NCBI GenBank assembly: GCA_904066235.2
Contig: CAJFCV020000003.1
Span: 7,006,001-7,070,000 of the forward strand
Direction of reading: 5' to 3'
Length of the DNA: 64,000 bases
DNA from: Bursaphelenchus xylophilus
Taxonomy: Eukaryota > Nematoda > Chromadorea > Rhabditida > Aphelenchoididae
The notes beneath the pieces are model-generated. The model searched no databases. It was not told the DNA's origin and worked only from the letters and a program-made list of their open reading frames with translations. Shown piece by piece: positions 6,045 through 12,000 of this stretch. The stretch's first letter is position 1; every line of letters begins with the position of its first letter. The translations under genes were made by a program, and so were the position numbers.

Positions 6045-9000
6045 ATGCATTTTATCGTGGGCTCTTTTGTTTTGTTCTGGCTTTATATACGAATAAATTG
6101 TAATCTAATGAAATTGAAAGCCGAGTACATGGAGAAGCATCTAAATATCTCTTTCGATCCGTGTGAAGACTTTGCTAATTATGCGGCATACAATCTCAAT
6201 TCGACTTTTATAAAATCATTGTATTTGGAGAAGGCCAAGCATGTTCTACAAGAACATTTTAGGCCAAATGAGGTAGGTACAAGGTGACATGACTATTTTT
6301 TTAGCCAAAATCGATCCAAAAAGCAAGAGAGATCTACCACAAATGTTTGAAAGACATGTCGGTATTCAATACTACCCTGAGTCTATTACAAATTGAAAAT
6401 ATAATTTCCGAGCTACCTGTTCAATTTCCCATCGGAATTGAGCAAATTAAAGACGACGAGATGTACCTCGGTTTGGTCGGCAAACTTTATAATCTTCTTT
6501 ATTCCCATGTTGCCGGTCCAATTGATGATTACACAATGCATTTGGAATCCGGCGATCTTTTTATAACAGAAGTTCATAAGCCAGATTTTTCGGAAAGGAG
6601 TAGAGCTTGGTGAGAGCATTTCATTTTGAATTTTACGTTTCCTTTAATTTTGAAGGAATGCTTATTGTACTCTTCGGGACTGTAAAGAAAACAGGATTTC
6701 GACCTCTTTTTTGGAGACTATGAATGGGACATATGGCCCTCCAAATATTAGTATCATCGCTCTAAAGAAGTTGATCAAGACTATTTTTGAAGTGGATGTT
6801 CCATTAGATGGAGTCAGAATCTATTTATTTACACCAGTCGACGTATGTCAAGTTTTAGAAAACATATATTATGGTTCTCAGGATTTATCAAGATCTTCAT
6901 TTCTGAACGCTTTATTTGAAAAGTTGTTAATCACGATTACAAAACCATTTGTTCCGTCCTCATGTGAGAAGATGACTATATCCGGGTTTTATTTGACCTA
7001 TCAGAAGATGTTATACGATCATTACACTCACAATACGACAGCGTTTTTGGTCTTTAACGAACAGTTTAGATATTATTCTACAAAGTTACTGCAAGAGGCT
7101 GACAATTTATTCAGGTTTGGAAATGTTTTAAACGACAAAACCAAAAACTTTATGCTGGAAAGAGTTAAAAACAAAACATTTAAATTTATAAATCAACCAT
7201 TCTTTTTGGAAGAAAATTACAAAAAATATGAGGCAGATGTTGGAATTGGGATGAAGAACATGTCGTACCTCATAAATCATTTGAAACCTTTGCTCAGATT
7301 TAATGCTGACAAAAAAATTAGACACTACAGTACTCCTTCTGTCTTTGTAAGCGGGATTCCTTACTATGAAAGTCCATTTTATTATATTATTTAGCACTTC
7401 TCCGCTCACTCCTCGAGAAGTCAGAATAATTATATCGGACTGAATAACTTTGAATTCCCACAATATGATGTTTCATTCCCCCCAATGCTAACCTTATCTG
7501 GCCCTGGATTCACAATGGCGCATGAATTGGGACATGCTTTTGGTACATTGGTTAACATAAAATCTAATAAGAGTGGTTTGAAAAAACATTTACCCTTTCC
7601 GGACGAGTCGGCACCTCCTGAAGAAATGAAAGAGGGTACCCTAGTGATGAATACTATAATAGTTACGCTTATCGAAACGTTATTTGGGACCTATGACAAA
7701 AAATGTCCTAAAAAATACCCCCATTTTACATAACCGTTACAAAATTTTTGTAACAAGCTGTAAATTAGAAACTGCCCCTAAATTAAAATCTAGTAGTCTT
7801 AGTACTGTTACATCCAAGAACTGTCCAAATCCGACTACTATTGAATCTGTTAACGATTTTTGAACATTGAATTTTTAGGTTTCGTGGTATGATGGACCGC
7901 ACATGTTTGATTCCGGCGGACGACAACCTGATTTTAGGGTCAAAACTTTACCGAAATTAAAAATTCAATGTTAGTGGTCGGATTTGGACAGTTCTTAGAT
8001 GTAACAGTAGTAGGACTCCCAGATTTTAATTTAACGACAGTTTTTATACTCCCCGCCAAAAGTTTTGACCCCCCTTCTAACTCGGCCCAAAGTGTACCAA
8101 TTTGGACCAAATTTGGTACGTAGTTTACTGACAACCTTGTAGTAAAAAATATCATAGTAGGACAAACCACTTAGCTGTATTTCAAAATCCAGGGACAATT
8201 TTCAAAAATCACCTCAAAAAAACGGGACAAAAGTTTTGACCCCCCTGCAAAAAAATTAAATATCGCCAGCGGAGGTAACCAGGGGCCTGTTTCACTAACA
8301 TAAAAATAAATAAAAGAGAAGTAGGGGGGAGCGAGAGAGCATCGAAAACGCGTTTGCGAGCGAGAGAAACCGGACGAAAAGCAGAAGTAGCTTACTTTTG
8401 CGGGAGTGACTTTTTACGTCCAAAACCGCGGTTGGCGGCAGTATTTTGGCCATAACTTTTTTTTCAGTTGGTCTAGGAACACCCTTCAAAATTTAGAATG
8501 AAGCTGACAGTTTCAGCTATCACCAAGATTATTTTCATTGCTGTGGTGCCAAAACCCGTCCTTAAAAAAATCGTAAAGTACGCGTGCTTTAATTTTTGAG
8601 AAAATCGACTAAATTTTAGCTTAAAATTCCCATAACTTGGGTTAAACTTTTCGGATTGAAACCCTCCAAAAAACAACACATAGAATTTTTTAAGTAGTTT
8701 TAGACAATATGTGTTTTGAATTCCTTTTATTGCCCGATGGACCGTTAATTTTACAGTAGTACGGCCAACCATCTCGTTTTTTCTTCTTCGCGGAATAAAA
8801 ACGAATTTTTCTCACCAATTTTTATAAGAATAATTACAAATTTCATATCAGTGTGTAGAGCCGTTTCTTAGCTACATTATTTTTTTTGAGGGGTGGCGAT
8901 ATATCATAAACTGATAGAGTTACGGGCAATTAAATCAAGGTAACCTCCATTTTTGACCATAAAAAGTCGTTCCGAAAGGGGCGAACTTTTGATTTGAGGG

Positions 9001-12000
9001 CTCTTTTTATGACAAAAATGGAGGTAAATTTGCCATAACTCAGCCATAATAAGACCTACAATTGTCCCTCTAAAAAAGCCTCATGGAAAAAAAGATGGGC
9101 TATCGACTGGTATAAATTAAAGCGTCAACATTTTGAAATTGACCGAGAAATAAAACATTTCGCATCTTCAGTGTAAATGTGCTCTGTACTTCAAGCTATA
9201 TAACTAATCTACTCTTGAAAATAAAGCAACGAAATTTGGATATGTTGTAGCCTTAACCGTCAGCTTTATTTGATTTTTTGAAGGGTGTTCCTACACCAAT
9301 TGAGAAAAAAGTTATGGCCAAAATTCTGCGGCCAACTCCGGTTTTTGGACGCAAAAAGTCACTCCGAAAGAGAAGTAGGCTACTTCTGCTTTTCGTCCGG
9401 TTTCTCTCGATCGCAAACGCGTTTTCGATGCTCTCTCGCTCCCCCCTACTTCTCATTTATTTATTTTTATGTTAGTGAAACAGGCCCCAGTTTCGTTGTT
9501 TTATTTTCAAGAGTAGATTAGCTATATAGCTTAAAGTACAGAGTACATTTACACTGAAGATCCGAAATGTTTTATTTCTCGGTCAATTTCAAAATGTTGA
9601 CGCTTTAATTTATACCAGTCGATAGCCCGTCTTTTTTTCTATGAGGCTTTTTTAGAGGGCCGATTGTAGGTCTTATTATGGCTGAGTTATGGCAAATTTA
9701 CCTCCATTTTTGTCATAAAAAGAGCCCTCAAATCAAAGGAAGAGGAAAAGTTCGCCCCTTTCGGAACGACTTTTAATGGTCAAAAATGGAGGTTACCTTG
9801 ATTTAATTGCTCGTAACTCTATCAGTTTACGATATATCGACACCCCTCAAAAAACATAATGTAGCTAAGAAACGGCTCTACACACTGATATGAAATTTGT
9901 AATTATTCTTATAAAAATTGGTGAGAAAAATTCGTTTTTATTCCTCCAAGAAGAAAAAACGAGATGGTTGGCCGTACTACTGTAAAATTAGCGGTCCACC
10001 GGGCTATAAGAGGAATTCAGAACACACATTGTCTAAAACTCCTTAAAAAATTCTATGTGTTGTTTTTTGGAGGGTTTCAATCCGAAAAGTTTTACCCAAG
10101 TTATAGGGATTTTAAGCTAAAATTTGTCGATTTTCTCAAAAATTAAAGCACGCGTACTTTACGATTTTTTTAAGGACGGGTTTTGGCACCACAGCAATGA
10201 AAATAACCTTGGTGAAAGCTGAAACTGTCAGCTTCATTCTAAATTTTGAAGGGTGTTCCTAGATCAACTGAGAAAAAAGTTATAGCCAAAATACTGCCGC
10301 GAACCGCGGTTTTGGACGTAAAAAGTCACTCCCGCAAAAGTAGGCTACTTCTGCTTTTCGTCCGGTTTCTCTCGCTCGCAAACGCGTTTTCGATGCTCTC
10401 TCGCTCCCCCCTACTTCTCATTTATTTATTTTTATGTTAGTGAAACAGGCCCCAGGACCTTTTGGAACCGGTGTCCCGTACCTGAACATGGGTTAATAAA
10501 TGTTTGTTTGTTGAATGCTTCGTTGCATTTGAGGATGCAACGCGTTAAACTGATTTTGATGTAGAGATGCCCAAAATGGTAAAAATCTTGTACTGGCGCT
10601 TTCCAAAAGTTTCAAATTATGTTCACATCATGTGATTTTGACGTGTTATAACCTGCATTAATCTTTTCCTTTCGAAAAAAGTCCATGATGGCCTAGCGGT
10701 ATCGATTCGGCCGATATCCAGTTGTCATGGTCAGCCTTGGTGAGCCATTTGCTCTTTGACTAAAGGTCTAGATGGGGTCGCTAGGTCCTCAATCTAATCC
10801 TGAGACTTGTGTCTACTCTCAAAACAAGAATAAACCCCCGCTGACACGATCCCAAATGGTTTGCAGATGCAACTTTACCGATCTGCACCTTAAAGAAAAA
10901 CCCGCTTTTTTCAAATGGATTTTTTGCGACCAAAAACGATTTTTACTTGGTGGGCCAGGTAATTTAGGACGCTACAGCACCCGCCATATTCATTTGAGAC
11001 GTATGGAACGCCAAATGGGCGGTGGGGATGGCATCGTACTCGGGCGCATCTACAGAAACGGCAAACTTAAGATTAAGGTGAATGAAACCCATTCCAAAAT
11101 GTGTCAAATCGAAACCTTTGTGCATGCTGAGAGTAAATAGGAGTCTCAGGATTAGATTGAGGACCTAGCGACCACATCTATTCCTTCAGTCAAAGAGCAA
11201 ATGGCACACCAAGGCTGACAATGACAACTGGATATCGGCCGAATCGATACCGCTAGGCCATCACGGACTTTTTTCGAAAGGAAAAGGTTAATGCAGGTTA
11301 TAACATGTCAAGATCACATGATGTGAACATAATTTGAAACTTTTGGAAAGCGCCAGTACAAGATTTTTACCATTTTTGGGCAGCTCTACATCAAAATCAG
11401 TTTAACGCGTTGCATCCTCAAATGCAACGAAGCATTCAACGAAAAAGCATTTATTAATCTGTATTCAGGTATGGGGCATCGATTGTAAAAGGTTCGGGCT
11501 ACATCCGGTTTCGATATTTAATTTTTTTGCAGGGGGTTCAAAACTTTTGTCCCGTTTTTTTGAGGTGATTTTTGAAAATTGTCCCTGGATTTTGAAATAC
11601 AGCTATATGGTTTGTCCTACTATGATATTTTTGACTACTATGTTGTCAGTAGACTACGTACCAAATTTGGTCCAAATTGGTACACTTTGGGCCGAGTTAG
11701 AAGGGGGGTCAAAACTTTTGGCGGGGAGTATAATTTACAGCTCGTTACAAAAATTTTATAACAGTTATGTAAAATTGGGGTATTTTTTAAGAAATTTTAT
11801 GTCATAAGTCCCAAATAACGCTTCGATAAGCGTAAATATTACAGTATTCATTACCAGGGTACCATCTTTCATTTCTTCAGGGAGGTGCCGACTCGTCCGG
11901 AGAGAGTTAATTTCAGGTTCACGGGTAGAAAACAGAAGCCGAGAATTAAACGAAACGCTCCACTGTTTTGAATCGTTTTATGAGAATCAATGCGATCCCA

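What the first reader, a model, noticed from the sequence alone, without database searches (positions are those of the whole stretch)
7543..11916. A Russian-doll of foldback elements fills one intron
The 4374-bp intron of M13 copy 2 is made almost wholly of inverted-repeat elements: outer element A (arms 7598-8280 and 11494-11903), B inserted in A's left arm, then C (960-bp arms) and D (Tc1-like) between A's arms. The intact right arm of A shows the order of events. The matching intron in copy 1 is 746 bp and holds unrelated DNA. The combined palindrome could fold into a multi-kilobase hairpin in the pre-mRNA and be a dsRNA/siRNA source, yet both flanking exons are undamaged.
Basis: partly seen in the sequence, partly recalled or inferred. 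Interest (0 to 1): 0.8.

Follow-up and report, generated by a model that had tools for sequence, protein, structure and literature searches.

The report
Nested mobile DNA inside one intron
In the pine wood nematode, one tiny intron appears to have been blown up to 4.4 kb by small hairpin-shaped jumping elements landing inside one another, an instructive but basically ordinary case of nested mobile DNA that leaves the host gene readable.

Summary
The palindromes are real, at the stated coordinates, in what matches a long-read assembly of Bursaphelenchus xylophilus. Copies elsewhere in the genome show three families and four insertions. E1 (TTAA target, piggyBac-like) landed directly before the TTTCAG acceptor of what would be a 56-nt intron. 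E2 (TA target, ~605-bp arms) sits in E1's right arm. A pair of C elements (CWG target, NuwaI-like) sits in E2's left arm. B is the inner part of E1, not an insertion. D is the core of E2. C is not one element with 960-bp arms: it is two copies in opposite orientation from different lineages (3.57% apart; one is 1.35% from a copy 6.6 Mb away), one lacking its 253-bp inner end. The predicted RNA is 89% paired, about 2000 kcal/mol below shuffles. A predicted B. xylophilus protein joins the exons exactly across the intron. A dsRNA/siRNA role is untested. Verdict: a well-resolved nested MITE locus, a new member of a known kind.

The parts
7395..7542 (+). M13 copy 2 exon ending in MAHELGHAFG (HExxH, zinc-binding motif, recalled)
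   Evidence: Gene model; P0001 joins HAFG to SRVENRS
7543..7588 (+). Original intron sequence with the 5' splice site; with TTAA and TTTCAG it makes a 56-nt intron
   Evidence: median intron of the species 69 bp (PMC3164644, passages)
7589..8046 (+). Ends in TA, the E2 target (8045-8046)
   Evidence: Comparison with ~1246-bp copies; flanks
8047..8282 (+). E2 left arm, outer 236 bp; last 3 bases are CAG, the C target site
8283..9487 (+). C copy beta, with both terminal repeats (GGGCCTGTTTCAC...GTGAAACAGGCCC)
9488..9490 (.). CAG between beta and alpha, a CWG triplet like the outer target duplications
9491..10452 (-). C copy alpha, reverse orientation, lacks its own inner end (253 bp as measured on beta)
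   Evidence: closest of 19 compared to L049 (1.35%); 3.57% from beta
10453..10455 (.). CAG, right target duplication of the C pair
   Evidence: intact E2 copies L018, L019, L021 carry one CAG here
10456..11730 (+).
11731..11732 (.). TA, right target duplication of E2
11733..11910 (+). E1 right arm, outer part, ending in TTAA (11907-11910)
11911..11916 (+). TTTCAG, the 3' splice site, directly next to E1
11917..12063 (+). M13 copy 2 next exon, carries ENFAD (third zinc ligand of the family, recalled)

Best explanation
A ~56-nt intron of an M13 peptidase gene received four successive insertions of non-autonomous, self-complementary DNA transposons. (1) E1, piggyBac-like, at TTAA next to the acceptor. 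(2) E2, mariner-type by its target, at TA in E1's right arm. (3) A 1.2-kb C element, NuwaI-like, at CAG in E2's left arm. (4) A second C element of another lineage, in opposite orientation, most likely into a CAG duplication of the first. That would make a 2.4-kb palindrome with a 3-bp centre, from one side of which 253 bp next to the centre were lost. Steps 2 and 3 are shown by target duplications plus genome copies without the insert; step 1 by family boundaries and a target duplication of which one side is mutated (TTTA), without an empty orthologue. In step 4 the two-lineage origin is shown; target reuse and central loss are inferred. How it persists (inferred): splice signals lie outside E1 and the RNA folds out as paired stems, so the gene can still splice; no function of its own is needed.
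For: E1: ~1246-bp palindromic relatives, TTAA on both sides in 6 of 7 loci shown. E2: TA on both sides in 28 of 29 fetched loci; the 29th (L075) gave no end match. C: identical CWG on both sides in 22 of 22 loci with both ends found, of 24 examined. Three of 7 intact E2 copies shown read CAG at the C site. Alpha groups with L049 (99/98), beta branches elsewhere. None of 22 copies showing the alpha breakpoint, of 24 examined, has a CWG there. Timing fits the nesting: window arms differ at 17/176 in E1 and by 6.76% in E2; end branches are 0.017 for beta, 0.0071 for alpha. Predicted protein P0001 joins the exons across the intron.
Against: No autonomous partner was found: no PF13843 or PF13359 hit in the genome (the PF13843 control was silent in all 14 genomes, so weak). 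The E2 core ORF matched nothing in Pfam or PDB nor the 2 DDE_3 loci tested of 8 found. E1 in L035 has TTAT, not TTAA, on its right. Three of 7 intact E2 copies shown have CCCG, not CAG, at the C site, and E2's left arm is a mosaic: a block of about 70-85 bp around the C site is of another E2 subtype (1 of 17 informative sites differ from L060, 15 of 17 from L020), so C may have arrived by conversion from another E2 copy rather than by direct insertion. P0001 is a prediction and differs from my model elsewhere. No transcript data were available.
Confidence: 0.85

Rival explanations
1. One reading: four foldback elements A, B, C and D, with B in A's left arm and C and D between A's arms.
For: All main arms exist.
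Against: Outer and inner parts of 'A' belong to different families with different target sites. 'B' is continuous with E1 in 7 of 7 E1 loci compared (L026-L029, L034-L036). 'D' is continuous with the 8045-8280 arm in 9 of 9 E2 loci compared (L017-L025).
Confidence: 0.04
2. The C pair is one inverted duplication made in place (template switch or sister exchange), not two arrivals.
For: The two halves are 96.4% identical and in inverted orientation.
Against: Alpha is 1.35% from L049 and 3.57% from beta; alpha+L049 support 99/98. Only later conversion of alpha by an L049-like copy could rescue it.
Confidence: 0.08
3. The C pair transposed into E2 as a preformed unit, using beta's outer end and alpha's outer end.
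For: One CAG duplication brackets the pair.
Against: In the list (48 forward, 44 reverse ends, up to 2 mismatches) I see three C ends together only in the window. Beta would have had to enter alpha at a site without CWG in 22 of 22 copies that show it.
Confidence: 0.2
4. C entered by ectopic gene conversion from another E2 copy that already carried it.
For: A block of a different E2 subtype straddles the insertion, and the L017/L020 subtype has no CWG at that position.
Against: No E2 copy with a C insert among the fetched loci (0 of 72 loci carry two families); other E2 copies were not all fetched.
Confidence: 0.25
5. The intron is kept because it produces long dsRNA that regulates the gene or the transposons.
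For: Predicted stems of 159, 223, 939 (690+249) and 369 pairs. Intronic inverted repeats are linked to dsRNA in C. elegans (PMC4282642, passages).
Against: About 25% of expressed C. elegans genes have inverted repeats in introns over 1 kb (same passages), so such structure needs no function. The window's E1 and E2 arms have diverged more than those of most other copies.
Confidence: 0.1

Closest known systems
Nested MITEs / foldback (palindromic) DNA transposons in introns
   Same: Non-autonomous, long terminal inverted repeats, target duplications, multi-copy, nested
   Different: Three target types (TTAA, TA, CWG) stacked in one ~56-nt intron; E1 and E2 are nearly all palindrome
NuwaI group of the PHIS superfamily (PMC4482050, passages)
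   Same: 5'-CWG-3' target duplication, 22 of 22 C loci with both ends found
   Different: Terminal repeats of ~232 bp and no transposase seen; no PF13359 hit in the genome
piggyBac-type palindromic elements (TTAA), such as the PALTTAA elements of C. elegans (recalled)
   Same: TTAA duplication, CCC termini, near-complete palindrome of ~1.25 kb
   Different: No piggyBac transposase found (weak); sequence relation to PALTTAA not tested
Maize double Ds (recalled)
   Same: Two copies of one family in inverse orientation, one of them incomplete, together forming a palindrome
   Different: Here the copies come from different lineages and meet at a CAG triplet

Membership tests
NuwaI (PHIS) | CWG 3-bp target duplication | tested here: met
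   22 of 22 loci with both ends found, of 24 examined; definition from PMC4482050 passages
NuwaI (PHIS) | PHIS DDE transposase in the element or an autonomous partner | tested here: inconclusive
   PF13359: 0 hits in own genome, control rang in 1 of 14 genomes; five longer C-end pairs hold no stop-to-stop frame over 177 aa
piggyBac | TTAA target duplication | tested here: met
   6 of 7 E1 loci shown (L035 has TTAT on the right); in the window the left side is TTTA, the right TTAA
piggyBac | DDE_Tnp_1_7 transposase with matching ends | tested here: inconclusive
   0 hits, but the control was silent everywhere; the three E1-end pairs of 2.6-3.0 kb hold no frame over 119 aa
Tc1/mariner | TA target duplication | tested here: met
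   28 of 29 E2 loci; the 29th gave no end match
Tc1/mariner | Related transposase in the core or in an autonomous partner | tested here: inconclusive
   The 122-aa core ORF matches no Pfam or PDB entry and neither of 2 DDE_3 loci tested, of 8 matches; a resemblance rests on recall only, so E2 is called mariner-type by its target and not filed as a member
Nested MITE locus | Element inside element, with the uninterrupted site known from other copies | tested here: met
   C site in intact E2 copies; E2 site in E1 copies

The most novel reading that the evidence does not exclude
E1 landed between the original branch point (in 7543-7588) and the acceptor TTTCAG. Splicing of this gene now depends on the 4.3-kb palindrome folding, because the E1 stem (7595-7766 with 11732-11904) brings branch point and acceptor back to a few tens of nucleotides. 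Self-complementary elements would then be 'splice-safe' cargo whose fold pays for their tolerance in very short introns, and later insertions are tolerated only if they too fold out.
Probability: 0.2. Interest if true: 0.6.

Novelty: new member of a known kind. Interest (0 to 1): 0.38.

Why it matters
It is a clean series of insertions: the layers have target duplications, two of them have uninterrupted copies elsewhere, and they diverge in the order expected. It shows how an apparent 960-bp-arm foldback element can really be two insertions of one family. It also gives a concrete locus for asking whether self-folding elements are tolerated in short introns because their fold restores splice geometry.

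Tried and rejected
In-place inverted duplication of C: rejected by distances and tree. Deletion between alpha's and beta's left terminal repeats: beta's left repeat is left-type from its first diagnostic base on (one exception) and the outer ~115 bp carry no diagnostic difference, so uninformative. Beta inserting into alpha at the breakpoint: no CWG there in 22 of 22 copies that show the site. Autonomous partners: 5 longer or deviant C-end pairs and 5 E1-end pairs were fetched; the longest stop-to-stop frame among them is 177 aa. PF13843 and PF13359 gave no hit; 2 of the 8 PF13358 matches were compared and are not like the E2 core. E1 arm divergence as a clock: used only beside 7 other copies. 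E2 arm divergence alone is not extreme: 2 of the 28 other copies exceed the window (L072, L073).

The same nest elsewhere: 0 of 72 loci (L017-L088) carry more than one of the three families. These were chosen by matching one family and have short flanks, so this is no whole-genome census; each DNA search scored only its best 40 candidates.

Papers: PMC7561696 whole text; PMC3164644, PMC4482050, PMC4282642, PMC12350175 passages; all others search listings only. Searches whose listings showed no description of these B. xylophilus elements: 20 of 857 listed; 12 of 80; 8 of 125; so absence from print is not shown.
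Full report
WHERE. The window is G000:C3:7006001-7070000. Protein P0001, 100% identical over its aligned part (35% of the query), is named as Bursaphelenchus xylophilus. A 4.4-kb palindrome lies well within such reads, so an artefact is unlikely, though I could not map reads.

THE GENE. The two M13 copies are supported by Pfam only in part: the copy-2 3' exon scores over the cut-off (50.8 against 24.5 bits), the copy-1 HExxH exon is below it (17.7), and the long copy-2 frame 6654-7394 has no hit. The copy-2 model joins in frame (start codon 6045-6047; exons 6048-6272 as scored, 6305-6609, 6656-7346, 7395-7542, 11917-12063, 12111-12445; one of 4 in-frame splice combinations). 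P0001 independently joins ...MAHELGHAFG to SRVENRS..., i.e. 7542 to 11917, although it differs from my model further upstream and at its end, and is a prediction. The intron lies between HExxH and ENFAD, so it must be removed for a complete zinc site (motif roles recalled). The copy-1 intron at the same place is 746 bp (4706-5451) or, with a second donor, 737, and holds a repeated element of about 183 bp.

THE PALINDROMES. The intron RNA folds to -3100.7 kcal/mol with 89% of bases paired, against -1074.3 +/- 13.9 and 61% in 12 shuffles. Main stems: 7595-7766/11732-11904, 8046-8280/11497-11731, 8282-9246/9479-10453, 10455-10847/11101-11495.

WHAT THE ELEMENTS ARE. E1: the outermost arm belongs to a family of ~1246-bp elements; the four aligned are palindromes over their whole length. 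TTAA stands at both ends in 6 of 7 loci shown; L035 has TTAT on the right. The end motif occurs 74 times forward and 70 reverse in the genome with up to 1 mismatch, control 0. It sits in E1's right arm at TA (8045-8046, 11731-11732). C: the genomic unit is about 1216 bp with ends GGGCCTGTTTCAC and identical CWG flanks in 22 of 22 loci with both ends found, of 24 examined. CWG duplications define the NuwaI group (PMC4482050, passages).

THE C PAIR. The 2.17-kb 'C' is a full copy (beta, 8283-9487), CAG, and a reversed copy (alpha, 9491-10452) lacking what corresponds to the last 253 bp of beta, then CAG. Of 7 intact E2 copies shown, three (L018, L019, L021) have a single CAG at that place, three (L017, L020, L024) have CCCG and L022 differs. 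Alpha differs from L049 by 1.35% and from beta by 3.57%; alpha+L049 has support 99/98. So the long arms are two arrivals, not one element. At alpha's broken end none of 22 copies showing the site has a CWG, so beta did not enter alpha there by the usual rule. Insertion of the second C into a CAG duplication of the first obeys the rule and would leave a palindrome with a 3-bp centre. Loss of 253 bp on one side of the centre, by palindrome breakage or by incomplete repair after excision, gives the present sequence; the two routes cannot be told apart here.

ORDER AND AGE. E1 outer arms differ at 17 of 176 sites in the window and at 0-4 of 176-177 in 7 other copies. E2 arms differ by 6.76% in the window; 26 of 28 other copies are lower and 2 higher. 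End branches are 0.017 for beta and 0.0071 for alpha. This order, E1, E2, beta, alpha, matches the nesting. One complication: a block of about 70-85 bp of E2's left arm around the C site is of a different subtype from the right arm (1 of 17 informative sites differ from L060, 15 of 17 from L020; in the matching right block 14 of 16 differ from L060 and 0 from L020). Conversion from another E2 copy, before or together with C, is therefore possible.

HOW IT IS TOLERATED. Without the elements the intron is 56 nt; the species median is 69 (PMC3164644, passages). E1 entered directly before TTTCAG. The original branch point should lie 5' of E1, so the E1 stem may bring it back to the acceptor, as hairpins do in yeast introns (PMC12350175, passages). 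This is inference; a branch point inside E1 is the simpler alternative. In C. elegans about 25% of expressed genes have inverted repeats in introns over 1 kb (PMC4282642, passages), so an intronic palindrome as such is common.

VERDICT. No function is shown.

Noticed in passing
window 26028-26688: Another inverted-repeat element (272-bp arms, 96%) whose arms contain a 15-bp minisatellite (GGCCCTTTCGGGGTG); a further 46-bp inverted pair at 25986-26031/26914-26959 encloses it, perhaps another nest.
   Followed up: partly
window 46666-47540: Inverted-repeat element with 288-bp arms (96%) that carry a different 15-bp minisatellite and a 29-bp double repeat.
   Followed up: partly
window 4777-4965: Copy-1 M13 intron holds a ~183-bp repeat with ~32-bp inverted ends; one search scored 40 of 365 candidates, its 39 best outside the window matching at 89-95%.
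   Followed up: partly
L035 (G000:C6:5043601-5053600): Four E1 copies in a tandem array of period 1937 bp, with two more arm hits further on to 5055918: a MITE turned satellite.
   Followed up: partly
E2 loci, e.g. L022, L023, L074: Arms within an E2 copy differ by under 4% in 23 of 28 copies other than the window, while copies differ from the window by up to 17.7%, so arms are homogenised or renewed together; the window copy, split by C, has the highest ratio (0.91 against at most 0.50 in 28 others).
   Followed up: partly
window 61998-62155: Two tandem copies of an 81-bp unit (93%); coding status not checked.
   Followed up: no
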